Source of the DNA: a virus
Direction: 5' to 3' (one strand)
Virus record (IMG/VR): IMGVR_UViG_3300043468_000365
Span: 32,433 to 96,432 of that record
Length of the DNA: 64,000 bases
Position numbers and translations under genes: made by a program. This document shows, piece by piece, positions 17,436-41,139 of this stretch. How positions within the stretch are numbered: the first letter of the stretch is position 1; each line of letters starts with the position of its first letter. A model generated the notes under the pieces. That model searched no databases. It worked only from the letters and a program-made list of their open reading frames with translations, and was not told where the DNA came from.

Positions 17436-17512
17436 GGTGCCGTGCCCGGAACTGGTTACGGGGCGGTCTGCAAAACCGTTTTATGTGGGTTCGAGTCCCA
17501 TCGGCACCTCCA
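17436..17512 (+). tRNA. tRNA-Cys (GCA)
   Basis: Cloverleaf with CCA encoded; anticodon stem GCGGT/ACCGT, loop CTGCAAA. Confidence 0.93.
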
Positions 17513-17526
17513 ATTACTTTATTGAT

Positions 17527-17585: not shown

Positions 17586-17602
17586 TCTCAATAGAGTAAT
17601 AT

Positions 17603-17680
17603 TCGGCGATAGCAATCCTGGTGATCGCACTCGGCTGTTAACCGAGATGAAGGTTGGTTCGAGTCCAACTCGCCGAGCCA
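17603..17680 (+). tRNA. tRNA-Asn (GTT)
   Basis: Cloverleaf with CCA; anticodon stem CTCGG/CCGAG, loop CTGTTAA. The same anticodon stem recurs in the Asp and Arg(ACG) genes of this array. Confidence 0.93.
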
Positions 17681-17684
17681 ATAC

Positions 17685-17759
17685 CGCCCATTCGTCTAGT
17701 GGCTAGGACGCCTGCCTTTCAAGCAGGAAAAAGGGGATCGAAACCCCTATGGGTGACCA
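17685..17759 (+). tRNA. tRNA-Glu (TTC)
   Basis: Cloverleaf with CCA; loop CTTTCAA. T loop ATCGAAA has A at position 54 instead of T. Confidence 0.92.
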
Positions 17760-17764
17760 ATTAT

Positions 17765-17840
17765 GGACCGATAGCTCAGTTGGTAGAGCAGGGGACTCTT
17801 AATCCCTTTGTCGTGGGTTCGAATCCCTCTCGGTCTACCA
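17765..17840 (+). tRNA. tRNA-Lys (CTT)
   Basis: Cloverleaf with CCA; anticodon stem GGGGA/TCCCT, loop CTCTTAA. Confidence 0.93.
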
Positions 17841-17843
17841 TTT

Positions 17844-17924
17844 GGAACATAACAACAGGACGCTGACTCTGCGAAGTAAGATATCGGGTTGATCTCCGAG
17901 AAGGTATGGAGAGTGTTATGTTCC
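17844..17924 (+). other. 81-nt element closed by an 11-bp stem
   Basis: Perfect inverted repeat GGAACATAACA (17844-17854) and TGTTATGTTCC (17914-17924) enclose about 59 bases with a second stem TCGG/CCGA. It has tRNA length but no CCA and no convincing anticodon arm. Confidence 0.5.
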
Positions 17925-17935
17925 TACTTTATTTT

Positions 17936-18011
17936 GGATCCGTAGCACAATAGGTGGTGCAAGGGACTTTTAATCCCAAGGCTGTCGGTTCGAGCCCGAC
18001 CGGATCCTCCA
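17936..18011 (+). tRNA. tRNA-Lys (TTT)
   Basis: Cloverleaf with CCA; anticodon stem AGGGA/TCCCA, loop CTTTTAA. Its 3' end is copied at 18163-18178. Confidence 0.93.
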
Positions 18012-18178
18012 ATAGTCGAGCGAAAGCGGTTAAGTTCATAACGACTCAAAATAAGTATGAATGAGAGTTAGACTAAGTTTTCTTCATTTCAGTGAAGAAA
18101 AGACTGGGTCGATGGGAAGTCTCTTTCACTAGGATCAAACTTCCCACTAAGTTTTTTGATGGTCTGACCGGATCATCC
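18012..18178 (+). other. 167-bp insert ending in a copy of the tRNA-Lys 3' end
   Basis: The stretch ends GACCGGATCATCCA, copying the 3' end GACCGGATCCTCCA of the preceding tRNA-Lys. Inside are three hairpins: AGTCG/CGACT, TTTTCTTCA/TGAAGAAAA and TGGGAAGT/ACTTCCCA. No gene is visible. It looks like an insertion or duplication at a tRNA 3' end. Confidence 0.5.
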
Positions 18179-18182
18179 AATT

Positions 18183-18256
18183 GCGGGTGTAGCTCAATGG
18201 TAGAGCCATAGTCTTCCAAACTAAAGACGAGGGTTCGATTCCCTTCGCCCGCTCCA
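18183..18256 (+). tRNA. tRNA-Gly (TCC)
   Basis: Cloverleaf with CCA; loop CTTCCAA; one A-A mismatch at the foot of the anticodon stem. Confidence 0.92.
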
Positions 18257-18260
18257 ATAT

Positions 18261-18341
18261 CTTCACGTATCCCCCTCGGCTACGAACCGAGAGTAAGGTA
18301 ACTGGATGAAAATGCAGGTTCGACTCCTGCCGTGAAGGCCA
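18261..18341 (+). tRNA. tRNA-Arg (ACG), lacking a normal D arm
   Basis: Acceptor CTTCACG/CGTGAAG, T arm GCAGG/CCTGC with TTCGACT and encoded CCA are normal, and the anticodon arm CTCGG-CTACGAA-CCGAG is perfect. Only seven bases (TATCCCC) separate acceptor and anticodon stem, so there is no D arm. A 22-base stretch with the D-loop-like AAGGTAAC follows the anticodon arm instead. ATCC before and GGAT after could pair around it. Confidence 0.65.
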
Positions 18342-18347
18342 TTTAAT

Positions 18348-18422
18348 GCTGGTAGGTCGGCAAGATGTCGAGGCGCTCTCATAAGGCGTTATAGGTTGGT
18401 TTAATTCCAACTATCAGCACCA
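18348..18422 (+). tRNA. tRNA with CAT anticodon (Met or Ile2)
   Basis: Cloverleaf with CCA; anticodon stem GCGCT/GGCGT, loop CTCATAA. The D arm (TCGGC/GTCGA) lacks the usual GG. Confidence 0.85.
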
Positions 18423-18504
18423 TGTTTGATCTAGATACACAGCCTTTATGGAGTGTCGCAATGCTAGACAACATTCGTTCCAAGACGTGAGGGACAGCAA
18501 GTTT

Positions 18505-18579
18505 TGCGGTCAGGTGGTCCGGAGACCATTCTTGTCTCATAAGCAAGAGAGCCATGTTCGACTCATGGGTCCGCATCCA
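18505..18579 (+). tRNA. tRNA with CAT anticodon (Met or Ile2)
   Basis: Cloverleaf with CCA; anticodon stem CTTGT/GCAAG, loop CTCATAA; one T-T mismatch in the acceptor. The 80 bases before it (18423-18504) hold nothing recognisable. Confidence 0.85.
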
Positions 18580-18581
18580 AT

Positions 18582-18655
18582 ATCGGTGAAGTGTTACGGT
18601 AGCACGGCAGTCTCCAAAACTGCAAGCCCAGGTTCGACTCCTGGCTCCGGTGCCA
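18582..18655 (+). tRNA. tRNA-Trp (CCA)
   Basis: Cloverleaf with encoded CCA; anticodon stem GCAGT/ACTGC, loop CTCCAAA. Confidence 0.92.
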
Positions 18656-18662
18656 GTTTTAT

Positions 18663-18738
18663 CTAGGTGTAGCTCAATTGGCAGAGCATCCCGTTTGGGG
18701 CGGGAAGGCTGTTGGTTCAAGTCCAGCCACCTAGACCA
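18663..18738 (+). tRNA. tRNA-Pro (TGG)
   Basis: Cloverleaf with CCA; anticodon stem TCCCG/CGGGA, loop TTTGGGG. Confidence 0.93.
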
Positions 18739-18753
18739 TTTAGGAAGATATAT

Positions 18754-18921
18754 ATGGATGAAAACTATTTGAAGCGCCAAATGATTTTTCGCTTGACAGT
18801 GTTCTTTTTATTGAGTATAGTAATAGGGTTCGTTCTATCGGATTTAAATATCCATAGTCAGATTAGTGGAGATAATCAGAATGTTCAAGATTTCAGAGGA
18901 AACCAAGGCAGCGGCAATTGA
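18754..18921 (+). CDS. single-pass membrane protein
   Basis: 55 residues with one membrane segment (MIFRLTVFFLLSIVIGFVL) and a short polar tail. AGGAAGATA precedes the ATG. It overlaps the next micro-gene; both sit between tRNA genes. Function unknown. Confidence 0.6.
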   Translation: MDENYLKRQMIFRLTVFFLLSIVIGFVLSDLNIHSQISGDNQNVQDFRGNQGSGN

Positions 18922-19021
18922 GGAAATGCGTAAAATTCTAGGTGATGGTCCTACAGACAATCAGTTGGAAGAGGCATTTGAAGCGGCAGTTGCTATTGTA
19001 AAGAAGCAGTTTGGTTTTTAA
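18881..19021 (+). CDS. helical micro-protein
   Basis: 46 residues, helical and acidic (MFKISEETKAAAIEEMRKIL). It starts inside the previous gene and ends nine bases before a tRNA. No family recognised. Confidence 0.5.
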   Translation: MFKISEETKAAAIEEMRKILGDGPTDNQLEEAFEAAVAIVKKQFGF

Positions 19022-19029
19022 TGTATAAT

Positions 19030-19120
19030 GGAGAGTTGGCTGAGTGGTCGAAAGCGGCCGTTTGCTAAATGGTTGGGCCCTAACCCGGTTCCATAGGTTC
19101 GAATCCTATACTCTCCGCCA
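19030..19120 (+). tRNA. tRNA-Ser (GCT)
   Basis: Class II cloverleaf with long variable arm and CCA; loop TTGCTAA. Confidence 0.93.
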
Positions 19121-19124
19121 ATTA

Positions 19125-19213
19125 GGAGTGAGCAACAGGCAAGGAGTCTGCACCGCTTGGAAAGCGGATGGTCCCCGAAAGGGGATAGGTGTCGGATACC
19201 TGCCACTCCGCCA
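19125..19213 (+). tRNA. tRNA-Ser (GGA)
   Basis: Class II cloverleaf with variable hairpin TCCCC/GGGGA and CCA; loop TTGGAAA; T loop GTCGGAT. Confidence 0.9.
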
Positions 19214-19219
19214 GTTTAT

Positions 19220-19309
19220 GGAAGAGTAAGCCAGTGGGACTGGCCTTCGTTTCGAAAACGAAAGGAGCCTGAAATATGGTTTGGGGATCGAGACCTCACT
19301 CTTCCGCCA
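19220..19309 (+). tRNA. tRNA-Ser (CGA)
   Basis: Class II cloverleaf with CCA; anticodon stem TTCGT/ACGAA, loop TTCGAAA; T loop ATCGAGA. Confidence 0.92.
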
Positions 19310-19314
19310 TTTAT

Positions 19315-19389
19315 GCGGGTTTAGTTCAGAGGTAGAACATCGGTGTTACATACCGAGTGTCGGTGGTTCGATTCCATCAACCCGCACCA
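19315..19389 (+). tRNA. tRNA-Val (TAC)
   Basis: Cloverleaf with CCA; anticodon stem TCGGT/ACCGA, loop GTTACAT. Confidence 0.92.
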
Positions 19390-19398
19390 GAAAGCAGA

Positions 19399-19451
19399 GT
19401 TGTCACGCTTCGTCTATGCTTAATAAGGTAGAATAGCGCACCAGACAACTT
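19399..19451 (+). other. stem-closed spacer element
   Basis: AGTTGTC (19399-19405) and GACAACT (about 19444-19450) enclose some 38 bases between two tRNAs. No ORF and no CCA-ended cloverleaf. Confidence 0.4.
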
Positions 19452-19459
19452 ATTATAAT

Positions 19460-19536
19460 GCGCTTGTAGTCCAATTGGTAGAGGCGCTGGTCTTAGAAAC
19501 CAGATGTTGTAAGTTCGAATCTTACCAGGCGCACCA
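19460..19536 (+). tRNA. tRNA-Leu (TAG) of class I shape
   Basis: Cloverleaf with CCA; anticodon stem CTGGT/ACCAG, loop CTTAGAA. The variable loop is only five bases, whereas bacterial Leu tRNAs normally have a long variable arm. Confidence 0.85.
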
Positions 19537-19617
19537 AACGTAGAGGGATTGTAGGTAGACCTGTAAGAAAACCGTTGCGACGAGTTATGACTGGGTTGTA
19601 ACCTTCATAGATTTAAT

Positions 19618-19693
19618 GCACTTAGAGGGAGCAGGTGAACCCACTCGGCTGTCAACCGAGTATCGGCCGGGTCAGTACCGGTTAAGTGCGCCA
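19618..19693 (+). tRNA. tRNA-Asp (GTC)
   Basis: Cloverleaf with CCA; anticodon stem CTCGG/CCGAG, loop CTGTCAA; T loop GTCAGTA is unusual. The 80-base spacer before it (19537-19617) has small hairpins only. Confidence 0.9.
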
Positions 19694-19698
19694 TTCAC

Positions 19699-19773
19699 GG
19701 GCCTGTAGTTCAGGGGGAGAACGTCTGCTTTGCAAGCAGAATGTCGGCGGTTCGATTCCGTCCAGGTCCACCA
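19699..19773 (+). tRNA. tRNA-Ala (TGC)
   Basis: Cloverleaf with CCA; anticodon stem TCTGC/GCAGA, loop TTTGCAA. Confidence 0.93.
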
Positions 19774-19774
19774 G

Positions 19775-19909
19775 TTTTGTGAGGCAGTATCGATACAAAT
19801 AATCCGGATGAGCAGAATTGCCACATCGAGGTCGGGAGACGGTGCGAGGCTGTCGTAACCTTGGGAACCCGGATACTGAAAAGAGGATGCATACTCGTTC
19901 CTCACAAAA
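19775..19909 (+). other. 135-nt multi-stem spacer element
   Basis: TTTTGTGAGG (19775-19784) pairs with CCTCACAAAA (19900-19909), and CAGTATC with GATACTG just inside. Further GC-rich stems are possible in the centre. No ORF with a ribosome site. Reads as a folded non-coding RNA or a processing element. Confidence 0.5.
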
Positions 19910-19919
19910 AAAGTTTTAC

Positions 19920-19994
19920 GCTTCGTTCGTCTATTGGCTAGGACACTCGCCTCTCAAGCGGGAAAGATGGGATCGATACCCATACGAAGCACCA
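19920..19994 (+). tRNA. tRNA-Glu (CTC)
   Basis: Cloverleaf with CCA; anticodon stem CTCGC/GCGGG, loop CTCTCAA; T loop ATCGATA. Confidence 0.92.
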
Positions 19995-19999
19995 TTTAT

Positions 20000-20075
20000 G
20001 CTTCTCTGGTGTAGGTGATCCGCACGACTGCCTGAAGAGCAGAAGGACTTAGTTTGATTCTAAGGGGAAGCACCA
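20000..20075 (+). tRNA. tRNA-Phe (GAA)
   Basis: Cloverleaf with CCA; loop CTGAAGA. Its acceptor 3' strand AAGGGGAAGC may also serve as ribosome site of the gene starting at its last base. Confidence 0.9.
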
Positions 20076-20266
20076 TGATGTTATATTATAAAATCACATA
20101 TCTTCCGATGTGGAAGAAAGAAGATAAAGAAAACGGTTATGATTGTATAGGTATTGTTATTGGTGAGCATCGTTGGTATGATACTGATCCTTATAACAAT
20201 AATCCAATACATAAGATAAAGTATCATCAGTATTCAGAGTTGATGATAGGTGTTATGCCCTCGTAG
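20075..20266 (+). CDS. small protein gene nested between two tRNAs
   Basis: 63 residues (MMLYYKITYLPMWKK). It begins at the last base of tRNA-Phe and its TAG stop lies inside tRNA-Leu(CAA), so it overlaps tRNAs at both ends. Translation and tRNA maturation would compete for the transcript. No family recognised. Confidence 0.55.
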   Translation: MMLYYKITYLPMWKKEDKENGYDCIGIVIGEHRWYDTDPYNNNPIHKIKYHQYSELMIGVMPS

Positions 20267-20333
20267 CCCAATTGGCAGAGGCAGTTGATTCAAACCCAAC
20301 TTAGTGTCAGTTCGAGTCTGACCGAGGGCACCA
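20257..20333 (+). tRNA. tRNA-Leu (CAA) of class I shape
   Basis: Cloverleaf with CCA; anticodon arm GTTGA/CCAAC with an A-C mismatch, loop TTCAAAC; short variable loop as in the other Leu gene. Confidence 0.8.
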
Positions 20334-20337
20334 ATTT

Positions 20338-20411
20338 GCTGGGTTAGTGTAATGGTAGCACCCGAGATTGTGGATCTTGGAGACCAGGATCGATACCTGG
20401 ACCCAGTGCCA
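20338..20411 (+). tRNA. tRNA-His (GTG)
   Basis: Cloverleaf with CCA; anticodon stem CGAGA/TCTTG, loop TTGTGGA; T loop ATCGATA. Confidence 0.91.
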
Positions 20412-20414
20412 TTT

Positions 20415-20488
20415 GCTCTTGTAGTATAAAGGTATTACACACCCTTGGTAAGGGTGAAAACTCGGATCGTTACCGGGCAGGAGCACCA
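20415..20488 (+). tRNA. tRNA-Thr (GGT)
   Basis: Cloverleaf with CCA; anticodon stem CACCC/GGGTG, loop TTGGTAA; T loop ATCGTTA has positions 54 and 58 swapped (A and T). Confidence 0.91.
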
Positions 20489-20492
20489 GATT

Positions 20493-20566
20493 GCCGGCTT
20501 AGTATAATGGTATTACAGTTGACTCGTAATCATCAAACAGAGGTTCGATTCCTCTAGCCGGCACCA
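20493..20566 (+). tRNA. tRNA-Thr (CGT)
   Basis: Cloverleaf with CCA; loop CTCGTAA; one T-T mismatch in the anticodon stem. Confidence 0.91.
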
Positions 20567-20598
20567 GAATGTAGACAAACGATTGTAAACATAGCCAC

Positions 20599-20627
20599 TT
20601 GACATTCCATTCCGGATGTGCTATTAT
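20599..20627 (+). promoter_or_regulatory. host-type promoter with conserved spacer
   Basis: TTGACA (20599), 17-base spacer TTCCATTCCGGATGTGC, TATTAT (20622). Drives the PseT-like gene. Confidence 0.8.
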
Positions 20628-20652
20628 AAGACATAATGAGAAAGGAAATGGA

Positions 20653-21126
20653 ATGAATAAGCGGAACTTGTGGATATTCGATATTGATGGAACGCTGGCT
20701 AACAACCTGCACCGTATCAAGCACCTTACCCAGAACACCACGAAGGACTGGGATGCTTTCTTTGCGGCACAGGATAAGGATGAACCTTACGAAGCCGTTA
20801 TGCATCTTATGAATACTCTACATAAGACTGGTGATAAGGTTATTGTTATTACTGCCCGTGACGAGCGTTTTCGTGCGGTTACTCTCCGTTGGTTGCAGCA
20901 GCATTGTGATTACGATTTTCCTGATGGCGATCTTTTCATGCGTAAGAGTGGTGATCGTACCGACGATGATAAGATCAAGTTGGATATTCTAAATGAGTAT
21001 CTTTCTCTGTTTCATCCTCGATATAAAGTGATGGGAGTGTTCGAGGATCGGCATCGTGTTATTGATGCGTGGCGTGAAGCTGGTTACTATGTGTTTGAGT
21101 GTAACCAGGATCGTGCCGATTTCTAA
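20653..21126 (+). CDS. polynucleotide 3'-phosphatase domain (PseT-like)
   Basis: 157 residues of a HAD-family phosphatase: motif I FDIDGTLAN near residue 9, VIVITARDE near 64-72 and the late segment FEDRHRVIDAWREAGYYV near 130. This is the pattern of the C-terminal phosphatase half of T4 polynucleotide kinase (PseT), which removes 3' phosphates from cut RNA. No kinase half is present. The start at 20653 follows AAAGGAAATGG. Its place inside the tRNA array, with RtcB elsewhere in the window, suggests repair of tRNAs cut by host defence nucleases. Confidence 0.8.
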   Translation: MNKRNLWIFDIDGTLANNLHRIKHLTQNTTKDWDAFFAAQDKDEPYEAVMHLMNTLHKTGDKVIVITARDERFRAVTLRWLQQHCDYDFPDGDLFMRKSGDRTDDDKIKLDILNEYLSLFHPRYKVMGVFEDRHRVIDAWREAGYYVFECNQDRADF

Positions 21127-21133
21127 AGTTTAC

Positions 21134-21207
21134 TGTCCCTTAGCTCAAAGGTAGAGCAATGTGCTGATAACACATAGACACTGGATCGTTACCAGTAGGG
21201 ACAACCA
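21134..21207 (+). tRNA. tRNA-Ile (GAT)
   Basis: Cloverleaf with CCA; anticodon stem ATGTG/CACAT, loop CTGATAA; T loop ATCGTTA. Confidence 0.92.
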
Positions 21208-21330
21208 GTTTATCCTGCTTTCTAGATACGCAGGAGAGGCCTAGCGGGAATAACAGAAGGGAATGCCCGTGAATATCGGATTGCTGACTTCATTAGCTAA
21301 AGGGCTAAACCGATAAGGCGTATGGAATAT
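21208..21330 (+). other. structured spacer
   Basis: Hairpins CCTGC/GCAGG, GGGAATGCCC and TATCGG/CCGATA, with an outer GCCT/AGGC closure, between tRNA-Ile and tRNA-Tyr. No gene seen. Confidence 0.4.
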
Positions 21331-21422
21331 GTGTGAGCGGCAACGGCGGTGGTGTTGCAGCGGACTGTAAATCCGTTCCCTTTGTGGTAACATTGTAGGT
21401 TCGAATCCTACCTCACGCACCA
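21331..21422 (+). tRNA. tRNA-Tyr (GTA)
   Basis: Class II cloverleaf with CCA; anticodon stem GCGGA/TCCGT, loop CTGTAAA. Confidence 0.93.
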
Positions 21423-21429
21423 TCTTTAT

Positions 21430-21504
21430 TCGGGGATAGTTAAATTGGCATAACGTCGGATTTTGGTTCCGACTTTCTAGGTTCGAGTCCTAGTCCCCGA
21501 TCCA
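21430..21504 (+). tRNA. tRNA-Gln (TTG)
   Basis: Cloverleaf with CCA; anticodon stem TCGGA/TCCGA, loop TTTTGGT. Confidence 0.92.
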
Positions 21505-21505
21505 T

Positions 21506-21579
21506 TCAGGAATAGTTCAACGGTAGAACAGCGGACTCTGACTCCGTTAATCTTGGTTCGAATCCAGGTTCCTGATCCA
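21506..21579 (+). tRNA. tRNA-Gln (CTG)
   Basis: Cloverleaf with CCA; anticodon stem GCGGA/TCCGT, loop CTCTGAC. Last gene of the array. Confidence 0.92.
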
Positions 21580-30220: not shown

Positions 30221-31462
30221 GTGATTAGACTTTCACAGTATATTACAGAAGCAGCGGCCGAAAAGGATCGCCATCTAACACATATTGAGGACGCCGTTCT
30301 GGAAGGTGGTGTTGCTGGCACTCGCAACGCTATTCAGTTCCTAATCTCCCTTAGAGATATGTTTGCCGATGATGGTCAGACTCTATCAGAAGCAAGAGGC
30401 GGCCTTATTCTTAGAACTAAGTTCGACGGCGCTCCTGCTATCTATGCCGGTATCAATCCTGAAAACGGAAAGTTCTTTGTTGGCTCAAAGTCTATCTTCG
30501 CCAAGAATGCTAAACTAAACTATACAGAAGCCGATGTTAGAGCCAATCACCAAGGCGGTCTGGCTGATAAACTGTCTGCCGCTCTAAAGTATCTACCAGA
30601 ACTAGGCATCAAAGGTATCGTTCATGGCGACTTTATGTTCTCCAAAAGCGAACTAAAGGACGAGACAATCGACGGCAAGAAGTATATCACATTCCGTCCT
30701 AATACAATCACATATGCTGTTCCTGCCGATTCTAAACTGGCACAGCAAGTCAGAGCGGCCAAGATTGGTATCGTATTTCATACCACATATCATGGCAAGA
30801 CGATGCAGACTCTCCAGACACATTTTGATATCAATGTAAATAACTTCAATCCATCACGAAATGTGTGGTATAGATCAAATAAGTTTGTTGATGTTACTGG
30901 TCGTGCTACTCTTACAAAGGCAGAGAATGCTAGACTAACAGGCATTCTATCACAAGCTGGTTCACTATTCAGAACAATACCTGCCTCACTAATGAACTTC
31001 ATTGCTACAAACGAAACACAAAGAATCCAGATTATGTCCTTCTATAATCAGCGCATTCGTGCTGGTGAACATATGGGTGCGGGCCATACGGCACAGCTAA
31101 TCAAATGGGTTGGCGACAAGTATCAAAAGCAAATAGACGACGCCAAGATGCCAGCGACTAAAGCAAAGCGCAAGGCTGAAAGAGATATGATCCTTAGATG
31201 GTATCGCCAGAATGCTTCCGATCTAAAGAAGATATTCCAGCTTCAAAATCTATTGATTGATGCCAAGATGCTACTGATTGCCAAGTTCAACATGGTGAAT
31301 GATCTAGGCACATTCTTACATACAGCCGATGGTGGCTATAAAGTAACAACTCCAGAAGGATATGTGGCTGCTTGGTCAACTGGTGGTGATGCTGTCAAAC
31401 TAGTGGATCGTATGGAGTTTAGTAGAGCCAACTTCCTGGCTGTAAAGAACTGGGGCAAGTAA
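30221..31462 (+). CDS. ligase/nucleotidyltransferase-like virion-region protein
   Basis: 413 residues from a GTG start after AAGAGGATT. The motif LRTKFDGAPAIYAG (Lys67, Asp69, Gly70) is the KxDG motif I of covalent nucleotidyltransferases such as ATP-dependent ligases, and GIVHGDFMF and IGIVFHTTYHG could be later motifs. The family is widespread and uncharacterised in T4-like phages (DUF6267-like). The N-terminus RLSQYITEAAAE resembles the capsid-targeting leader of T4 internal proteins, with ITE a prohead protease site, so it may be packaged and injected. Confidence 0.65.
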   Translation: MIRLSQYITEAAAEKDRHLTHIEDAVLEGGVAGTRNAIQFLISLRDMFADDGQTLSEARGGLILRTKFDGAPAIYAGINPENGKFFVGSKSIFAKNAKLNYTEADVRANHQGGLADKLSAALKYLPELGIKGIVHGDFMFSKSELKDETIDGKKYITFRPNTITYAVPADSKLAQQVRAAKIGIVFHTTYHGKTMQTLQTHFDINVNNFNPSRNVWYRSNKFVDVTGRATLTKAENARLTGILSQAGSLFRTIPASLMNFIATNETQRIQIMSFYNQRIRAGEHMGAGHTAQLIKWVGDKYQKQIDDAKMPATKAKRKAERDMILRWYRQNASDLKKIFQLQNLLIDAKMLLIAKFNMVNDLGTFLHTADGGYKVTTPEGYVAAWSTGGDAVKLVDRMEFSRANFLAVKNWGK

Positions 31463-31581: not shown

Positions 31582-33585
31582 ATGTTCAATAAAAAAGTTG
31601 TATTCATTTTCGGACGTTTCCAGGTACCTACAAAAGGCCATGCTGAAATGATCCACTTCGGTGCTAACTATGCTAGAAAGATTGGCGCCGAGTTTAGAGT
31701 TTATACCTCCAAGTCCTGGGATCCTAAAAAGAATCCTCTTCCATATCAGCAAAAAGTAATGTTTCTTCGCCAGCTATTCCCTGGCATCAATATCGTTGAC
31801 GATCCAAATGCTACAACCGCATTTGCTATTTGTAAAAAACTCTCCGATGAAGGCGTCGAAGATGTGACAATGATTACAGGTGGTGACCGTGTAGCAGAGT
31901 TCAAGAATAGCATTGGCAAATATGTTCTGCCTAGAGACAATCCAAAGTTTGATAAGAACAAAAACTATGCCTTTAGACGCTTTGATGTAATCAACTCTGG
32001 CGGTCGTAAGGCAGGCGTATCTGGAACACAGATGCGTGAATATATCCGTGGTGGCAAGTTTGGCGAGTTTATGAAGACCGCACCTACCGCCGATAGAGCA
32101 TTAGCCAAGAAGATTTTCACCGCAGCCAAATCATATCTCAAAGAAGATACTCTAACCGAGGATCTATCTCGCAAAGAGTTTGATGGTATGCTGAAAAGTT
32201 TTATTGACTTTACTGTCGGCAAACTTGGCATTGTAGAACCTCCTGAAATAGAATACAAAGAAGCTGACGATCACGGCGACCAGCCATCATTTGGTGGTTA
32301 TTCACCAGGTGAGAAGAAGCTAATCGTTATGACAAAGAATCGTCATCCAATGGACATCTTTAGAACTGTCGCACATGAACTGGTCCATCACAAACAAAAC
32401 GAAGATGGTAGACTCGGTAAAGATATCAAGCAAGAAGGCTCAACTGGTTCAGATATTGAAAACGAAGCAAACTCGGAAGCAGGTAAAGTAATGCGTTGGT
32501 TCGGCAAGGCTAATCCAGATATGTTTGGTAAGTCATATGTTATAGAACATAAGGCAATCGTTCTTGGTGGTGTTCCTGGTTCAGGCAAAGACAAGATACT
32601 AAAAGAAGCTATTCTACCACATGGCTTTAGAGAAGTATCAGATAACAAGTTTTCCATCAAAGAGTGTAATGGTGATAATCTTGTAGTCAATGGCACCATG
32701 GCAGACTATGAAGCAACAAGACAAATCAAGAATATCCTTGAGAGTGCCGGTTACAAGACGATTATGCTATTTGTGAATACCAGCAATGATGTATCCAGAC
32801 AGCGTAACGAAGCAAGGTCAACCACTGGTGGTCGTGTCATTGCCGAAGAAAAGCGTTATGAAAAGTGGAGCAAGGCACAGTTCAATCTAAATCGTTATGA
32901 CCAGCTATTTGAGAAGGTTATTGAGGTAAAGAATGACCTTGACGCCAATACTATTGTTGAGACATACAATAAGTTCGTTGACTCCATTTCCAAAGAAGTG
33001 GAAGAGTTTCTATCCAGTGATATGGACCGCCGCTTTGAGAATATGCTAGAACAGTATTCGGACTTCTCACCAAAGGCAAAGAGCAATCCAGTAGGTGGCG
33101 CAGGAAACTGGGGCACACCTAAGCTAACAGATCGTTATAAGAAAGATACGCCAGGTCAGGAGCCAGGTAAGACAAGAGATATGGGTTATTATGAAACTAA
33201 AGTCTTTGGCAATCTACCCATCAAAGCGGATCGCCTTGGTCAGACATTTACCTCTGCCAAGAATCCTTCATTTGTCGGTGATATAACAAGCGATGATAAT
33301 CCTTTCATTACTGGTGAACCAAATCAGCTATGGTCTCCTATTGACCGTTGGATGATGAAAGAAGAAACTCGTAGAAGATTCAAAGCAAAGTATGGCAAAC
33401 TAGCCGAAGAAAAGATGAAAGAAACGGCTGAAAAAGTGAGAAAAGAAAGCCTGATTGACCCTTATATGGGATCAATGGGCATGACTCCAAACACAATGAG
33501 TCAAGATGAAGTAAAACCTGATGTGAACGCAGAGTTTGAAAAAACAGCATTGTTTGGAAAAAGAAAATACAAAAAGACTAAATAA
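31582..33585 (+). CDS. fusion: nucleotidylyltransferase, HExxH metallopeptidase-like and P-loop domains
   Basis: 667 residues. Residues 1-185: HIGH-type nucleotidylyltransferase fold (FGRFQVPTKGHAEMI at 10-24, SGTQMREYI near 147). Residues 195-320: a zinc-peptidase-like segment with AHELVHHK (264-271; HExxH). Residues 325-480: a P-loop domain with VLGGVPGSGKDKIL (327-340) like small kinases. The remaining tail is Lys/Glu-rich with repeated Pro/Gly motifs. KEDTLTEDL near 187-195 holds an LxE site between the first two domains. It lies behind a TATAAATA motif among virion genes. Related cytidylyltransferase-like proteins occur in marine phages; the triple fusion is unusual. NMN adenylyltransferase activity is one possibility. 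Confidence 0.75.
   Translation: MFNKKVVFIFGRFQVPTKGHAEMIHFGANYARKIGAEFRVYTSKSWDPKKNPLPYQQKVMFLRQLFPGINIVDDPNATTAFAICKKLSDEGVEDVTMITGGDRVAEFKNSIGKYVLPRDNPKFDKNKNYAFRRFDVINSGGRKAGVSGTQMREYIRGGKFGEFMKTAPTADRALAKKIFTAAKSYLKEDTLTEDLSRKEFDGMLKSFIDFTVGKLGIVEPPEIEYKEADDHGDQPSFGGYSPGEKKLIVMTKNRHPMDIFRTVAHELVHHKQNEDGRLGKDIKQEGSTGSDIENEANSEAGKVMRWFGKANPDMFGKSYVIEHKAIVLGGVPGSGKDKILKEAILPHGFREVSDNKFSIKECNGDNLVVNGTMADYEATRQIKNILESAGYKTIMLFVNTSNDVSRQRNEARSTTGGRVIAEEKRYEKWSKAQFNLNRYDQLFEKVIEVKNDLDANTIVETYNKFVDSISKEVEEFLSSDMDRRFENMLEQYSDFSPKAKSNPVGGAGNWGTPKLTDRYKKDTPGQEPGKTRDMGYYETKVFGNLPIKADRLGQTFTSAKNPSFVGDITSDDNPFITGEPNQLWSPIDRWMMKEETRRRFKAKYGKLAEEKMKETAEKVRKESLIDPYMGSMGMTPNTMSQDEVKPDVNAEFEKTALFGKRKYKKTK
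33578..33584 (+). promoter_or_regulatory. late-type motif CTAAATA
   Basis: CT-AAATA across the stop of the fusion gene, 45 bases before the next start. Confidence 0.4.
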
Positions 33586-33628: not shown

Positions 33629-34957
33629 ATGAGTAATCCATTTCTAACAAAGAAGGACCCGCTATTAGAAGCAGTCCAGTCCGCCATGCAGGATGGTGAG
33701 ATTCGTCGTAAGGCCGAAGCCCTTGTAAACGAGGAGTTCGGTGTCTATTCTCGTAAGGCAGTTGTCCGTGAGGATCTTGCTGCTTATGATGCTCGCCTTG
33801 AGGAAGCATATAAGTGCATGAAGGAAGGTGAACAGATTGATGAAATACGTGATCGTCCAAAGAAAGATGATATAAATCGTCGTAAGCGTGATGCCGTTGC
33901 TATGAAACTCGGTCACGATAATCCCGAAGGTCGCAACAATAACTACAATGCTCCCGTAAGTATGCTAAAACATGGTCGCAAACTTATGAAGCAGGGTGTT
34001 ACCAAAGAAGAAAAAGCCGACAAAGACTATGACAAGGACGGCAAGATAGAGTCTCCAAAGGACGAAGTTTGGGGTTCTCGCTTCCGTGCTGCTAAGATGG
34101 CAGGCAAGATGGAAGAAGAACAGATCGATGAACTTTATGGTAAGGGTAAGTTACCAGATATTCGTCGCAAACATTCTGACGACTATCAAACACATAAAGC
34201 CAGAGCCAATTTTCATCATGGTGAAGCTGACAAGGCTGATGAAAAAGACGATGATGAAAAATTCGAGCGTCATTATGGGAAGGCAGTTGGGCATGAAAGA
34301 AGTGCAGAAAAATCCGCAGCTAAGAGAGGTCGTGCATCGGCTTTGATGGATCGTGCCAAGGCATCGTCCGATCTTAAGGCTGCTAAGAACAAGGCAAAGG
34401 AATATAGAAAACTTGCTAAAGAAGAAATACAGATTGATGAACTAAAGAAGCCAACTGCTAAGACAGCAATGCAGGCATATCGTCGTGCAGAAACGCATGA
34501 TGACATGGATGGCAACTGGAATAGAAGTAATCGTCTTTATAGATGGAAAGAAAAGAATCTTCCTGGCAAGAGTGCAAGAAATCAAAAGCCAACAGGAAAA
34601 GCAAAACTTCCTGATGTTAGCAATACAGATTTTCATAAGGATGGATATTCAGGCCATTTTACTAAAAAAGGCAAACTTACTAAGTCTGCAACCAAAGACA
34701 CAAAGGCCGATATCAAAAGTCGTCTTGGAAAACATACAAAACCAAATCTACCAGAAGGTTATGAACTTGACGAAGCGGCATATTCAGCAAAGGCTGCCCG
34801 TGCTGGTAAAGATATTGGTAAGCCAGGCAAGATGTTCTCTAAGATTGCTGCTAAAGCTGGTGAGAAGTATGGATCCGAAGAGCGTGGCAAGAAAGTTGCC
34901 GGTGCTATTCTAAAGAGAATCCGTGCCAAGCATATGAAGGAAGATTCGTCTTTCTAG
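33629..34957 (+). CDS. repetitive protein with QIDE cleavage-like motifs
   Basis: 442 residues, strongly charged and Lys-rich. Short repeats with EGEQIDEI (about 66), EEEQIDELY (162), EEIQIDEL (265) and YELDEA (377) precede helical basic segments. I/L-x-E is the recognition pattern of the T4 prohead protease gp21. It may be an internal head or scaffold protein cut into fragments. The C-terminus is a helical basic domain (GKKVAGAILKRIRAK). Ends in TAG; reading through would add 12 codons and stop at a TGA overlapping the next ATG. Confidence 0.65.
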   Translation: MSNPFLTKKDPLLEAVQSAMQDGEIRRKAEALVNEEFGVYSRKAVVREDLAAYDARLEEAYKCMKEGEQIDEIRDRPKKDDINRRKRDAVAMKLGHDNPEGRNNNYNAPVSMLKHGRKLMKQGVTKEEKADKDYDKDGKIESPKDEVWGSRFRAAKMAGKMEEEQIDELYGKGKLPDIRRKHSDDYQTHKARANFHHGEADKADEKDDDEKFERHYGKAVGHERSAEKSAAKRGRASALMDRAKASSDLKAAKNKAKEYRKLAKEEIQIDELKKPTAKTAMQAYRRAETHDDMDGNWNRSNRLYRWKEKNLPGKSARNQKPTGKAKLPDVSNTDFHKDGYSGHFTKKGKLTKSATKDTKADIKSRLGKHTKPNLPEGYELDEAAYSAKAARAGKDIGKPGKMFSKIAAKAGEKYGSEERGKKVAGAILKRIRAKHMKEDSSF

Positions 34958-34992
34958 GCGCACCGGAAACGGGTAAGTCGGTATCCGAGCAA

Positions 34993-35718
34993 ATGAGACC
35001 TACGGCCGCACAAGCGTTGGCTAAATTAAATAGTATGCCAAAGCCAGCGGCGCCGGCCGCAGCACAAGTTGGACGCACACAGGCAGTAGGCTCACAAAAC
35101 ATTAGACCTGCGGGATCGACTAATGCTGGTGGTAGCGGATCAGTAACTATGGCTCCACGTCCACCAGTAAGACCTACTAGTCTTGGCACAACTACAAGAC
35201 CGCCTGCTGCATCAACAGCAACAAAACCCGGCGTTGTTTCTAAGTCTGATCTAGATACATATAGAAAAAACGTAGGTAATCCGAATGCTACCTTAGGTCA
35301 GTATATGAATGATCTTAAAGGATTGACAGCACGTAAGGGTGGTGCAAATGATCCTTCTGTTATTCAAAAGAGACTTGATCCTAAGGGACTAAAGGCCTTT
35401 GATCCTTCAAAGGCTGAAAAAGCACAAGGTCCAGAGCAGTCAGCAGCACCCGCTCCAGCAACACCAAGAACAGATAGTAGCGTTCCTGGAGCATCTACAG
35501 CAGTCACTACACCAAAAGGTGGCTCGGATGCTATGACTCCTAATTATGGTAGAGAGAGTGATCCTCTTGATCGTACCAATTCACCTGTAAGTGGATCAAG
35601 GCATCAAGGTGGTGCTGGTCTTGATAATGAAAAAGAGGCAAAGAACAGAACTTCTCAAAATAGTCAAATTGCTGAGTCTGTCGTGTCCGTTGGTGCAAAT
35701 AAATATAGGATAGTATGA
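34993..35718 (+). CDS. low-complexity virion-region protein
   Basis: 241 residues rich in Ala, Pro, Ser, Thr and Gly, probably unfolded in large part, with a short folded centre (KSDLDTYRKNVGNPNATLGQ). NSQIAESVVSVG near the end holds an IxE site. The ATG is the first start codon in the frame and lacks a clear ribosome site. No family recognised. Confidence 0.6.
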   Translation: MRPTAAQALAKLNSMPKPAAPAAAQVGRTQAVGSQNIRPAGSTNAGGSGSVTMAPRPPVRPTSLGTTTRPPAASTATKPGVVSKSDLDTYRKNVGNPNATLGQYMNDLKGLTARKGGANDPSVIQKRLDPKGLKAFDPSKAEKAQGPEQSAAPAPATPRTDSSVPGASTAVTTPKGGSDAMTPNYGRESDPLDRTNSPVSGSRHQGGAGLDNEKEAKNRTSQNSQIAESVVSVGANKYRIV

Positions 35719-35885
35719 TGAAACATCCGTATGATGTAAAGAAACTCGTAAGAGAGGATCGTAAAAAAGTCCTCTCTAAGAGACAACAAATAAAAGCAAA
35801 TACAACCGAGACGGGCAAACCCGCTGATCCTGTAGAATTGGATCCAGCAAAACAGGGTATGCAGAACACCTCTCTAACTAACTAA
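35715..35885 (+). CDS. small charged protein
   Basis: 56 residues (MMKHPYDVKKLVREDRKK), overlapping the previous stop. Helical basic start, disordered end. Function unknown. Confidence 0.55.
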   Translation: MMKHPYDVKKLVREDRKKVLSKRQQIKANTTETGKPADPVELDPAKQGMQNTSLTN

Positions 35886-35896
35886 AGGAAACTACA

Positions 35897-36508
35897 ATGC
35901 CACTATGGGGTAATAAAGACAACGCTGCCAATTCAGACATTGCAGCAACAATTCAGGTCAATCAGGCAACCACACCTGGTAATCGTGCCAATCTATATGG
36001 CAATGTTACCATGTCTGCCATCACAACAAATCTAGCAATCGGACAGTTTGCTGTAGACACAAACGAAGTCCGTGCTAATCCAAGAATCCCACACTCCGGT
36101 TGGGTTCTTCGTAAAGAAGGCACCGGTCTTCGTGCTGGTCGTGTAACATACGAAGTTCTAGTTGCTACAGGTTCTATCGCTACCGATGGTTCCGATGACA
36201 CTAACTTCCCAGACTTTACACTACGCATTACCACACAGCCAACAAGCGCAAATGGTGCCGGCAATGTCAATCTAACTGTTGCTGCTGCATCAACACCAAC
36301 AGGCGCTACACTATCCTATACATGGCAGCGTAACGCTGGTGCTGGTTGGATATCTGTTCCAAATACAGCTGGTGTTTACTTCAACAATACTTCACCAACT
36401 CTTGTCGCAAATGCCGCAGTCGCAAACGCAAACACCTTCCGTGTTCTAGTTTCCGCAGCTGGAGCAAACACAGTTACATCCGCAAACGCTGCCGTAACAA
36501 CACCATAA
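35897..36508 (+). CDS. Ig-like virion structural protein
   Basis: 203 residues. The N-terminus MPLWGNKD is typical of conserved structural proteins of T4-like phages. The second half (about 110-203) reads as an Ig-like beta domain (VNLTVAAASTPTGATLSYTW). Such domains decorate phage heads or tails and may bind host surface sugars. AAAGGAAAC precedes the ATG. Confidence 0.65.
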   Translation: MPLWGNKDNAANSDIAATIQVNQATTPGNRANLYGNVTMSAITTNLAIGQFAVDTNEVRANPRIPHSGWVLRKEGTGLRAGRVTYEVLVATGSIATDGSDDTNFPDFTLRITTQPTSANGAGNVNLTVAAASTPTGATLSYTWQRNAGAGWISVPNTAGVYFNNTSPTLVANAAVANANTFRVLVSAAGANTVTSANAAVTTP

Positions 36509-36518
36509 GGAGAGTTAT

Positions 36519-38675
36519 ATGAAAACTTTCCGTGAACACCTAAACGAAGAAATCACAATCGGTGCCCTCGCTAGTGGGGGCATCGACATTGAGCGTGACG
36601 CCGTTAGAGACGAAGTAAATGGCATTCTAGCTGGTATCGCTGCCAGACCATGTGTAACACCTTATGCTTCACTCAATAAGGTTCGCAAGGCTCTAGCATA
36701 TTTCCACATTCATCTACCAAAGAAAGTCTATCTAGAGGGTAGACATGGTATTGAAGTATGGGAAGTAAATCAGTTTGGTAACAAGATGGGCTTCACCGAT
36801 ACAGGTGAATGGATCAATCAAGTTCCTGCCAAGTATTATCTTTTCTTTCACTATCATCTAGTCGGTTCCATGTATTATCTACAAGCCAAGATTGTGGATG
36901 ATAAAGAACTAGAATCCAAGATTGGTGCGGCTGAAAGTATGGTCGCTGAGGAAACATTAGAAGAAGCGATTCGTCATTCAACTTCACATAAAGTTGTTCA
37001 TGCCGATAGTAAAAAAATTGTTGCTCAGGGCAGTAAAAAAGAAATGATGAAAAAGATGAAGGAATTAAATTCCAAAAATCCAAGAAGTCATTTTTTGGGT
37101 AATTCGCCTAGTAAAAAAGTTGGTGATGTTTTTGGAGAAGAAACCGATGCTGCCGTCCGTCAGGCAGTTGCTAAGGCCGCTGCACCAAAAGAAAAGGCAC
37201 ATACTGTTCTAGACGATTGCGACTGTAGCCAAGGAGACTCACCAAGCACCCAGTCTGCCATCAAAGTTATGATGAAAAAGCAGATTGACGAAGATGATTC
37301 AACTAAAGCGATTCAAAAAATCGTTGCTAAGAATAAGATAAAAGATGTTGTCAGGTCTGGTAAAAAGAAAAGCCAAGCTTGGTATGATAAAATGACAAAG
37401 CGTGCCAATCAAAAAGAAGAAGTTGAACTTGACGAAGTATCTCTAGGCAAACTTGTTCGCTATAAGAGAGGTGCTGAAAAGTCCCATGGCGATGCTACTT
37501 GGGAAACTAAGTTCACCAAATCTATGGGTGATGATCCTTCTCCTTCTAAGGCATTAGCAAGAAAAAGAGAAAAAGGTATTGCTCTTGCTGATAAGAAGAT
37601 GAAAGGCAAGGCAAAAGTAAATGCTTCTATGCCTAAGAATGCTTACATGGAAGAAACCCAGATTGATGAAATCTCTAAGGAACTAGCAAACAGATATAGA
37701 AAGAGGGCACACGCCTCCTATACATATGCTGCTGGTAAGAGAGAAGATGACCGCTTTCACGAAAGGGCCGGCAAAGATATGACGGACGTTTTTGGTAAAC
37801 CTAAGTTTAAGGATAGACCAGAATCAGAAAAGGCAAAAGACGAAAAGACCATTGGAAAAAGACTAAAAGGTCTAACCATGGCACATAAGCGTCTAAAAGA
37901 AGAAAAGATTGATGAAGTATCCGCTGGTCTTGCTAGCCGTGCTGCCCATCATGCTTATGTAAAGTCCGATAAGATGAAGAAGGATGCCCAGAAAGAACCT
38001 GATATGTATTCTTATGTTCAGGCATTCCATAAAGGCGAAAAGAAGAACAAGCAAGGCATCAAGTTTGCTAAGTATGCTGCCAATAAGATGGAAGAAGATA
38101 AAGATCCTTGCTGGAAGGGTTATGAAATGGTTGGCATGAAGAAGAAGGGCGGCCGCCAGGTGCCTAACTGTGTGCCAGTCAAAGAAGAACAGATTGATGA
38201 GGTTTCTAAAAAGACTCTTAGAAGTTACCTTGCGAAGAAGAAAGATCGAAACAAGGATTACGCAACACCCGAGTCTTTTCGTAAAGGAATGCTATCTCCT
38301 AACCTTGCTAAAGACAAGATCAAAGGCAAGAATGTAAAAGTTCATGCTAAAGAAGAAACACAGATTGATGAACTAAAGCAGGCAACTCTCAAAGCATACA
38401 AGAGTGCGGCTAAAGCAGACCGCAATGTAAGTAAAGAAGTTGTTAGAAAAGGCCTTGACACAGAAGGCAAGTTCAAGCACGCCATCAAGAAAAGAAAGAA
38501 AGGTCTTGAAAGAGTATCTGATAGACTAGAAGAAAAGGCACCTCCAGGCGCAAAGTTTGAGCGCATGGTAAAGCACATCAAGAAAGGCTATTCTAAGGAC
38601 GGTCTAACTGCCAAAGAAAAGTCTATTGCTTACGCTACAGCATGGAAAGCAAAGAAGCGTGAAGAAAATAAGTGA
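36519..38675 (+). CDS. large QIDE-repeat protein (candidate internal head protein)
   Basis: 718 residues, highly charged. MKTFREHLNEE at the start resembles the capsid-targeting leader of T4 internal proteins (MKTYQEFIAE) and has an LxE site. Residues 1-145 look folded; from about 150 follow Lys-rich helical repeats, each introduced by an I/L-D-E motif: KQIDED (253), VELDEV (301), TQIDEI (379), EKIDEV (461), EQIDEV (556), TQIDEL (613). If cut by a gp21-like protease these would give separate basic DNA-binding-like fragments. DPCWKGYEMVGMKKKGGRQVPNC near 530 is a familiar short block in marine phage proteins. AAGGAG precedes the ATG. Confidence 0.65.
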   Translation: MKTFREHLNEEITIGALASGGIDIERDAVRDEVNGILAGIAARPCVTPYASLNKVRKALAYFHIHLPKKVYLEGRHGIEVWEVNQFGNKMGFTDTGEWINQVPAKYYLFFHYHLVGSMYYLQAKIVDDKELESKIGAAESMVAEETLEEAIRHSTSHKVVHADSKKIVAQGSKKEMMKKMKELNSKNPRSHFLGNSPSKKVGDVFGEETDAAVRQAVAKAAAPKEKAHTVLDDCDCSQGDSPSTQSAIKVMMKKQIDEDDSTKAIQKIVAKNKIKDVVRSGKKKSQAWYDKMTKRANQKEEVELDEVSLGKLVRYKRGAEKSHGDATWETKFTKSMGDDPSPSKALARKREKGIALADKKMKGKAKVNASMPKNAYMEETQIDEISKELANRYRKRAHASYTYAAGKREDDRFHERAGKDMTDVFGKPKFKDRPESEKAKDEKTIGKRLKGLTMAHKRLKEEKIDEVSAGLASRAAHHAYVKSDKMKKDAQKEPDMYSYVQAFHKGEKKNKQGIKFAKYAANKMEEDKDPCWKGYEMVGMKKKGGRQVPNCVPVKEEQIDEVSKKTLRSYLAKKKDRNKDYATPESFRKGMLSPNLAKDKIKGKNVKVHAKEETQIDELKQATLKAYKSAAKADRNVSKEVVRKGLDTEGKFKHAIKKRKKGLERVSDRLEEKAPPGAKFERMVKHIKKGYSKDGLTAKEKSIAYATAWKAKKREENK

Positions 38676-40134: not shown

Positions 40135-41139
40135 ATGTCGGTATACATCGATAAAAAGTATATTTCTCTCCTCGCTCCTAAACTTTCACAGTTCAAGCAG
40201 CGGGGAGAATTTTTATGGAACTTCCGTTGTCCAGTTTGTGGCGATTCCCAAAAGAACAAAATCAAGACCCGTGGTTACATCTATAAGCGAAAGGAACACT
40301 TTGGCTTTATGTGTCATAACTGCGGTTCCACTATGGCGTTGTCTAAGTTCATTCGCTATGTGGATCCTGTTCTCTATAATGAGTATCAGTTGGAATCGTT
40401 TGTTCAGTCCAATACAACAAACACCAAAGTGGATGTAAATGACTTTGTGTCCAAGCCTGTGTTTGTTTCCAAGCCTAAGACTATTGTAACCACCAAACTT
40501 TCGGAGTTGAGTCCAAAGCATCATGCCAGAAAGTATATGGAAGATAGAAAAGTTCCTATCGACCATCTATTCTATACGGACGACTTCTCAAAGTTTGTCA
40601 AGGACCTATTTCCTGAAAACGACAAACAACTATATAAAGAAGAACGCATCATCATTCCTTTCCATGACAAAGAAGGCAATCTTCTAGGCGTTCAAGGTCG
40701 AGCAATCGGTCCTTCCAAAATCAAATACATAACGATCAAGGCAGATGAAACAGTTCCTAAGATATTTGGTTGGGATAGAGTTGATGTTAGTCGCACTATG
40801 TATGTGGTTGAGGGTCCCATCGACTCTCTTTTTATTGACAATAGCCTGGCTACTATGGATGCAAGTTTGTATGTTGCGGCTAGTATCGTAGGTCTTGACT
40901 ACGACTATGTTTTCGTCTATGATAATGAACCTCGAAACAAGCAAATCGTAAGCAACATGCGGAAGACAATCGACATGGGTAGAAAGATTTGTGTATGGCC
41001 TACGGATATCAAAGAGAAAGATATCAATGAAATGGTATTGGCAGGAATGCATCCTTCCCATATCCAGCACATCATAGATACTAATACCTTTGCAGGATTA
41101 GAAGCGACAATGAAAATGAACCAGTGGAGCAGAGTATGA
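40135..41139 (+). CDS. 61: DNA primase (T4 gp61 type)
   Basis: 334 residues, the size of T4 gp61 (342). An N-terminal zinc finger (CPVC 32-35, CHNC 60-63) is followed by a TOPRIM domain with VVEGPIDSLF near 224 and VYDNEPRN near 260. It makes RNA primers for the lagging strand together with the gp41-type helicase at 14976. Confidence 0.93.
   Translation: MSVYIDKKYISLLAPKLSQFKQRGEFLWNFRCPVCGDSQKNKIKTRGYIYKRKEHFGFMCHNCGSTMALSKFIRYVDPVLYNEYQLESFVQSNTTNTKVDVNDFVSKPVFVSKPKTIVTTKLSELSPKHHARKYMEDRKVPIDHLFYTDDFSKFVKDLFPENDKQLYKEERIIIPFHDKEGNLLGVQGRAIGPSKIKYITIKADETVPKIFGWDRVDVSRTMYVVEGPIDSLFIDNSLATMDASLYVAASIVGLDYDYVFVYDNEPRNKQIVSNMRKTIDMGRKICVWPTDIKEKDINEMVLAGMHPSHIQHIIDTNTFAGLEATMKMNQWSRV

What the first reader, a model, noticed from the sequence alone, without database searches (positions are those of the whole stretch)
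33629..38675. Repeated (Q/E)(I/L)DE motifs look like prohead protease sites in internal proteins
Two large charged proteins carry about ten copies of QIDE/KIDE/ELDE, each before a Lys-rich helical block. T4 gp21 cuts after I/L-x-E. The 718-residue protein starts MKTFREHLNEE and the 413-residue ligase-like protein has RLSQYITEAAAE, both like the leader of T4 internal proteins. These may be polyproteins cut in the prohead into basic peptides that enter the host with DNA.
Basis: partly seen in the sequence, partly recalled or inferred. Interest (0 to 1): 0.75.

Follow-up and report, generated by a model that had tools for sequence, protein, structure and literature searches.

The report
Phage head polyproteins with protease-site joints
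A freshwater T4-like phage makes two long proteins built from interchangeable basic pieces joined by short acidic linkers; each linker carries what looks like the cutting site of the phage's own head protease, so the proteins are probably chopped inside the forming virus head and some pieces may be carried into the host.

Summary
The 442-aa (33629-34957) and 718-aa (36519-38675) proteins carry exactly ten [QKE][IL]DE copies; 0 of 20,000 shuffles reach ten. The protease reading is well supported by sequence but not shown by experiment. (1) Five relatives of 164-174 kb, sharing 66-71% mean protein identity, encode the T4 gp21-type protease (S77) and gp23, whose leader has a candidate L-N-E|A site. 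(2) Conserved modules are preceded by [ILMV]-x-E in 47/48 and 21/22 non-redundant contexts. The last position is Glu 103 times, Asp once, although Asp is common there in other proteins; T4 gp21 likewise rejects Asp. (3) Two otherwise near-identical 718-aa alleles differ by module gains or swaps whose ends lie at these sites. (4) The leader MKTFREHLNE is conserved. In cyanophage S-CREM2 similar leaders occur on four mass-spectrometry-detected virion proteins (cytidylyltransferase, SAM hydrolase, a kinase, ORF13) and on no undetected protein; module-type proteins are detected there too. Best model: capsid-targeted polyproteins with double-cut acidic linkers. Whether the pieces are injected, condense DNA, or leave the head like T4 core peptides is open. 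New variant of a known kind. The protease gene is not in this 96-kb record.

The parts
36519..38675 (+). 718-aa modular protein: capsid-targeting-like leader, N-terminal domain, then basic modules separated by acidic linkers
   Evidence: ORF; six [IL]DE; module swaps at sites; orthologues in 19 loci
36519..36548 (+). leader MKTFREHLNE, candidate site L-N-E|E after residue 10
   Evidence: conserved as MK[ST]F..[HFY][LI].E in orthologues; T4 IPIII targeting sequence is also 10 residues with processing determinants at 8 and 10 (PMC9026906)
37281..37292 (+). QIDE site, residues 255-258
   Evidence: becomes QVEE in the L005 allele
37425..37436 (+). ELDE site, residues 303-306
37659..37670 (+). QIDE site, residues 381-384, with upstream MEE at 377-379
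   Evidence: left end of the two-module insertion relative to L005
37905..37916 (+). KIDE site, residues 463-466, with upstream LKE
   Evidence: lies in a predicted helix, unlike most other sites
38097..38177 (+). module B DKDPCWKGYEMVGMKKKGGRQVPNCVP (residues 527-553), preceded by MEE|
   Evidence: preceded by [ILMV]xE in related freshwater contigs; 12/19 non-redundant contexts overall
38190..38201 (+). QIDE site, residues 558-561, with upstream VKE
38361..38372 (+). QIDE site, residues 615-618
38523..38534 (+). RLEE site, residues 669-672
   Evidence: position before module A: 21/22 [ILMV]xE, 22/22 Glu
38535..38663 (+). module A (DUF6321-type) KAPPGAKFERMVKHIKKGY..., residues 673-715
33629..34957 (+). 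442-aa modular protein; start MSNPFLTKKDPLLE|A
   Evidence: conserved N-terminal region in relatives
33833..33844 (+). QIDE site, residues 69-72, with upstream MKE
34121..34132 (+). QIDE site, residues 165-168, with upstream MEE
34430..34441 (+). QIDE site, residues 268-271
34763..34774 (+). ELDE site, residues 379-382, with upstream LPE
34775..34945 (+). module F AAYSAKAARAGKDIGKPGK... (residues 383-439)
   Evidence: [ILMV]xE within 0-3 residues before it in 47/48 non-redundant contexts
30221..31462 (+). 413-aa DUF6267 protein with leader MIRLSQYITE|A
   Evidence: phrog_455 / PF19782; leader pattern kept as RLSDFLTE|A, RLNQYLKE|A, KFKQHLTE|S, NFSKYITE|D, DFKNFITE|Q, KFTQFLAE|S
31582..33585 (+). 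667-aa cytidyltransferase + metallopeptidase-like + P-loop kinase protein; candidate junction sites YLKE|DTLTE|D and YVIE|H
   Evidence: kinase encoded alone with an ILKE|G start in HTVC008M
34993..35718 (+). 241-aa protein ending QIAE|SVVSVGANKYRIV
   Evidence: the same kind of C-terminal tail ends the 442-type proteins of L023 and L066

Best explanation
The 718-aa and 442-aa proteins are internal-head polyproteins of a T4-like phage. The 718-aa protein is steered into the prohead core by an N-terminal leader of the T4 capsid-targeting type. The phage's S77 (gp21-type) prohead protease then cuts after Glu at [I/L/M/V]-x-E sites. Many junctions have two sites 4-7 residues apart, so cutting would remove the leader and the acidic linkers and release separate basic modules of roughly 40-100 residues. 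At least some pieces stay in the DNA-filled head and probably enter the host with the DNA. Because the sites flank self-contained modules, the joints also serve as swap points for recombination. Shown: sites, modules, conservation, module swaps, and the protease in close relatives. Inferred: cleavage, retention, injection, function of the pieces.
For: Ten sites against a shuffle mean of 0.17, maximum 5. S77 protease (E 1e-34 to 1e-37) and gp23 in all five 164-174 kb relatives plus a 109-kb one, with 58-69 of 97 proteins shared at 66-71% identity for the five. gp23 leaders carry a conserved candidate site LNE|AAPTN. Module F preceded by [ILMV]xE within 0-3 residues in 47/48, module A in 21/22, while upstream sequences are otherwise unrelated and the offset can shift. 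P1 is Glu 103, Asn 5, Asp 1, whereas P2 is mostly Asp; at the same motif in other proteins Glu:Asp is 1069:829; Asp at this position blocks T4 processing (PMC9026906). The L005 allele differs by a 63-aa insertion, a module replacement and a 147-aa two-module insertion, all bounded by such sites. Leaders: 15 found against 1.0 expected. In S-CREM2, leader-bearing cytidylyltransferase, SAM hydrolase, kinase and ORF13 are all virion-detected (4/52 vs 0/115 with the strict leader, one-sided p = 0.009); module-type gp160 and gp137 are detected too. Six larger records with module F also have S77, including 320-337 kb ones.
Against: No S77 gene in this 96-kb record, which lacks gp23 as well and is a fragment. 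No mass spectrometry of this phage or of cut ends. Module B follows a site in only 12/19 contexts. The KIDE site at 463-466 lies in a predicted helix, although both structure models are weak (mean pLDDT 52 and 61). P3 Val/Met goes beyond the published T4 L/I-x-E. S-CREM2 mass-spectrometry coverage of gp137 and gp160 is only 4% and 13%. Homologous sequences are not independent, so the counts overstate significance.
Confidence: 0.62

Rival explanations
1. They are prohead-core proteins of the gp22/gp67/gp68 type: cut many times by the protease, with the fragments leaving the head to make room for DNA. They would act in assembly and not as delivered effectors.
For: T4 gp22, gp67 and gp68 are cut into multiple fragments that mostly leave the head (PMC9026906; PMC5694885). 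Basic, weakly folded modules. Low mass-spectrometry coverage of the S-CREM2 module proteins.
Against: Genes lie with DUF6267 and cytidyltransferase, away from the gp20-gp23 core cluster. A separate core-protein-like ORF already sits next to gp21 in the relatives. Module content changes freely between close relatives, unusual for an essential core. S-CREM2 gp160 and gp137 were detected in purified virions.
Confidence: 0.22
2. The acidic [IL]DE segments are uncut linkers or docking motifs, for example binding scaffold or other partners, that are conserved because they begin each folded module.
For: Sites are tied to module starts; no cleavage shown; one site lies in a predicted helix.
Against: Upstream residues vary while only P3 and P1 are kept, and the offset to module F shifts by 0-3 residues. 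Glu over Asp at P1 is 103:1 against 1069:829 elsewhere. The same pattern ends the short leaders.
Confidence: 0.11
3. Processing is done by another protease, such as the metallopeptidase-like domain of the neighbouring 667-aa protein, as proposed for polyvalent proteins and P1 DdrB.
For: Weak metallo-protease match at residues 220-300 of the 667-aa protein (phrog_87, E 0.00046); autoproteolysis proposed for polyvalent proteins (PMC5512222).
Against: The site pattern matches gp21-type specificity, and S77 was found in every long relative tested. Whether the metallopeptidase-like domain is present in those relatives was not tested.
Confidence: 0.05

Closest known systems
T4 internal proteins IPI-III and Alt, processed by gp21 (PMC9026906)
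   Same: Short N-terminal targeting leader ending in [I/L]-x-E; Glu-specific processing; S77 protease in relatives; proposed packaging with DNA
   Different: T4 IPs lose one propeptide (Alt loses two); here about 10 internal sites split basic modules, with paired sites around acidic linkers; no family search linked them to IPs
T4 prohead core proteins gp22, gp67, gp68 (PMC9026906, PMC5694885)
   Same: Cut at several sites by gp21; charged, small fragments
   Different: Gene position, free module exchange, and the leader of the 718-aa protein; fate of fragments unknown
phiKZ / 201phi2-1 / SPN3US head proteins (PMC10052503, PMC5694885)
   Same: Extensive Glu-specific prohead proteolysis; multiple cuts within long propeptides
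   Different: SPN3US motif is A-x-E (S-x-E in phiKZ); multi-cut regions are mainly propeptides, not repeated interchangeable modules
Polyvalent proteins (PMC5512222)
   Same: Multidomain, mosaic, proposed to be injected with DNA and possibly processed
   Different: Those carry disparate enzyme domains and often their own peptidase; here mostly small basic modules with external protease sites
S-CREM2 virion proteins gp154, gp6, gp14, gp13, gp160, gp137 (PMC10665884)
   Same: Same leader or module types; detected in virions
   Different: The passages read do not discuss leaders or cleavage; cut ends unknown

Membership tests
T4-type internal (IP/Alt-like) gp21 substrates | N-terminal capsid-targeting leader of about 10 residues ending in [I/L]-x-E | tested here: met
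   718-aa and 413-aa proteins, conserved across relatives; the 442-aa protein has no MK-type leader, only DPLLE|A
T4-type internal (IP/Alt-like) gp21 substrates | Phage encodes a gp21-type S77 protease | tested here: inconclusive
   Absent from the 96-kb fragment; present in all five long relatives
T4-type internal (IP/Alt-like) gp21 substrates | Cleaved after Glu at [I/L]-x-E in the prohead | not testable with these tools
   Only sequence evidence; needs mass spectrometry or an in vitro assay
T4-type internal (IP/Alt-like) gp21 substrates | Present in mature virions | tested here: inconclusive
   Not known for this phage; module-type and leader-bearing proteins detected in S-CREM2 virions
T4-type internal (IP/Alt-like) gp21 substrates | Ejected into the host | not testable with these tools
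   No data
gp22/gp67/gp68 prohead core proteins | Encoded in the gp20-gp23 head cluster | tested here: not met
   In G001-G006 a core-protein-like ORF lies next to gp21; the module proteins lie elsewhere in G001-G005
gp22/gp67/gp68 prohead core proteins | Multiple gp21 cuts | tested here: inconclusive
   Multiple candidate sites; cleavage not shown
Polyvalent proteins | Several disparate enzymatic domains in one polypeptide | tested here: not met
   No Pfam or NCBIfam domain in the 442-aa or 718-aa proteins

The most novel reading that the evidence does not exclude
T4-like phages of fresh and marine waters, up to jumbo size, use their head protease to unpack polyproteins of interchangeable small basic effectors inside the capsid; the protease sites double as recombination joints, giving a fast-evolving cassette of injected peptides.
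Probability: 0.35. Interest if true: 0.82.

Novelty: new variant of a known kind. Interest (0 to 1): 0.63.

Why it matters
Many proteins packaged with phage DNA are hard to recognise because they share no sequence. A leader plus [ILMV]-x-E joints gives a readable code for finding packaged proteins in uncultured T4-like phages. It would also account for why a cytidylyltransferase, a SAM hydrolase and a kinase turn up in S-CREM2 virions. A head-protease polyprotein with swappable modules would be an unusual way for a phage to deliver and diversify small early-infection proteins.

Tried and rejected
Search for S77 and gp23 in the window's own record: none, record incomplete. Module F in GTDB genomes: no relative, so no cellular homologue could serve as a protease-free control. 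Structure search of the 718-aa model: no match; models weak. PDB sequence search for DUF6267: none. NCBIfam: nothing useful. Literature on DUF6321/DUF6267: none. Supplementary tables of S-CREM1 and S-SM1 could not be read, so detection of S-CREM1's 783-aa module protein is unknown. The idea that sites are merely module N-caps was considered and judged unlikely because the offset shifts and P1 excludes Asp.

Full report
What is there. The window is bases 32433-96432 of a 96,432-base virus record. Its + strand carries DUF6267 (30221-31462), a 667-aa cytidyltransferase fusion (31582-33585), the 442-aa protein (33629-34957), a 241-aa protein, a head-protein-like ORF (35897-36508, phrog_613), the 718-aa protein (36519-38675) and a phrog_407 protein, followed by a 334-aa ORF at 40135-41139 that takes the place of the primase gene of cyanophages (inference from gene order). 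Cyanophages keep a similar order: DUF6267, cytidyltransferase, small proteins including a DUF6321-type one, head/structural protein, primase. This is a T4-like (Kyanoviridae-type) neighbourhood.

The motif. The two large proteins hold ten [QKE][IL]DE copies and no other window ORF of 100 aa or more has more than two [IL]DE. Shuffling the two proteins 20,000 times gives a mean of 0.17 and a maximum of 5. Six of the ten have a second [ILMV]xE 4-7 residues upstream. The segments after the sites are net +8 to +18, the linkers mostly negative. Double cutting would therefore remove the acidic linker and leave a basic piece.

The protease. T4 gp21 cuts after Glu at L/I-x-E (PMC9026906). The record in hand has no S77 match, but it also lacks gp23, so it is a fragment. 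All five long relatives (164-174 kb, mean identity 66-71% over 58-69 shared proteins) and a 109-kb one encode S77 and gp23. Their gp23 leaders carry a conserved candidate site LNE|AAPTN, or LNE|SAPTN in G006. Six further records with module F, including 320- and 337-kb contigs, also encode S77.

Conservation of the joints. Modules were defined by their own conserved sequence and the upstream residues were then read. Module F (AAYSAKAARAGKDIG...) has [ILMV]xE within 0-3 residues in 47 of 48 non-redundant contexts, against 10 of 48 in the control interval 8-11 residues upstream. Module A (KAPPGAKFERM...) has it at the exact position in 21 of 22, with Glu at P1 in 22 of 22. Module B is weaker, 12 of 19. 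Sequences before the tripeptide are unrelated between many contexts (ELDE, TMKE, SIRE, QVDE, HINE and so on), and in some lineages the site sits 1-3 residues further away. That speaks against a rigid structural cap.

Glu, not Asp. In 109 linker sites P1 is Glu 103, Asn 5, Asp 1, while P2 is mostly Asp. At the same [ILVM][DEN]x pattern in other proteins of these genomes Glu:Asp is 1069:829. In T4, Asp at the cleaved position blocks processing (PMC9026906). These counts include homologous sequences and are not independent.

Module swapping. The L005 allele matches the 718-aa protein almost perfectly over shared parts (50/52 and 192/195 residues in the two longest conserved blocks) but lacks 63 residues at MVAE|, has a different module between Q[IV][DE]E| and [IL]DE|VSLGK, and lacks 147 residues (two modules) exactly at MEE|. 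Orthologues in 19 loci share leader and N-terminal domain but differ in module number and order.

Leaders and virion presence. The 718-aa leader MKTFREHLNE is kept as MK[ST]F..[HFY][LI].E; DUF6267 shows its own version. A broad leader pattern occurs 15 times in 1027 proteins against 1.0 expected from shuffled N-termini, in about five families plus one probable chance hit. For cyanophage S-CREM2 a virion proteome is published (PMC10665884). There, MKNFSSFLTE (cytidylyltransferase), MKDFDSFLEE (SAM hydrolase), MKRFDAFLTE (kinase) and MKDLHSFLTE (ORF13) are all on detected proteins. The broad pattern hits 4/52 detected and 1/115 other proteins examined, Fisher two-sided p = 0.033; with the strict MK leader it is 4/52 against 0/115, one-sided p = 0.009. 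The strict form was chosen after seeing the hits, so this p is optimistic. The Cas9-like ORF12 has RFASFMAE|A near its annotated start. Module-type gp160 and gp137 are also detected, at 13% and 4% coverage. A cytidylyltransferase family is virion-associated in S-SM1 as well (PMC3037559).

Mechanism. Most likely the proteins enter the prohead core, are cut by S77 at paired joints, and some basic pieces stay with the DNA. Injection is an inference from T4 IP/Alt precedent (PMC9026906; PMC12373910). The main rival is a core-protein role with fragments leaving the head. Structure models are weak; most sites fall in or next to low-confidence stretches, but KIDE-466 lies in a predicted helix.

Verdict. 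Observation confirmed; interpretation partly supported. Works like T4 gp21 substrates; formal membership is unproven because cleavage and virion presence are untested in this phage. New variant of a known kind.

Noticed in passing
L242:3837-5081, 7704-10313, 10310-10546, 10579-12846; L236:18609-19469: S-CREM2 virion-detected enzymes carry T4-IP-like leaders (SAM hydrolase, kinase, ORF13, cytidylyltransferase), and the Cas9-like protein has RFASFMAE|A near its annotated start; this suggests head targeting and not contamination.
   Followed up: partly
L144:11030-11977, L150:866-1999, L197:7090-8403, L198:3141-4457, L203:6225-7547, L208:2645-3940, L242:7704-10313 and 10579-12861: A small conserved domain (KKLGL..DGHGGW.D..G..VAKTE.GKL) follows the leader in 8 of 8 cases on different proteins; possibly a shared packaging or delivery domain.
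   Followed up: partly
31582-33585: 667-aa cytidyltransferase + metallopeptidase-like + P-loop kinase protein has [ILV]xE at the domain joints (YLKE|DTLTE|D, YVIE|H); HTVC008M encodes the kinase alone, starting ILKE|G.
   Followed up: partly
34993-35718: 241-aa protein ends in IAE|SVVSVGANKYRIV; a like tail ends the 442-type proteins of L023 and L066. Possible C-terminal propeptide or tag.
   Followed up: no
G006:C1:87253-87585 (relative): 110-aa very basic protein beside the S77 gene begins MVTQSMGLLDELTEEQIDE|IISEA, the same EEQIDE linker in a gp68-like position.
   Followed up: no
7294-7368 and 16683-21579: Large tRNA set (27), including one with anticodon CTA (called Pyl, more likely an amber suppressor); TAG ends only 4 of 63 + strand ORFs of 150 aa or more of the record.
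   Followed up: no
L056:1590-2204, L169:4454-5065, G004:C1:6073-6687: HAD-phosphatase-like proteins with leaders MKSFLEYINE|S or MKTFKEFLEE|S, further candidates for packaged enzymes.
   Followed up: no
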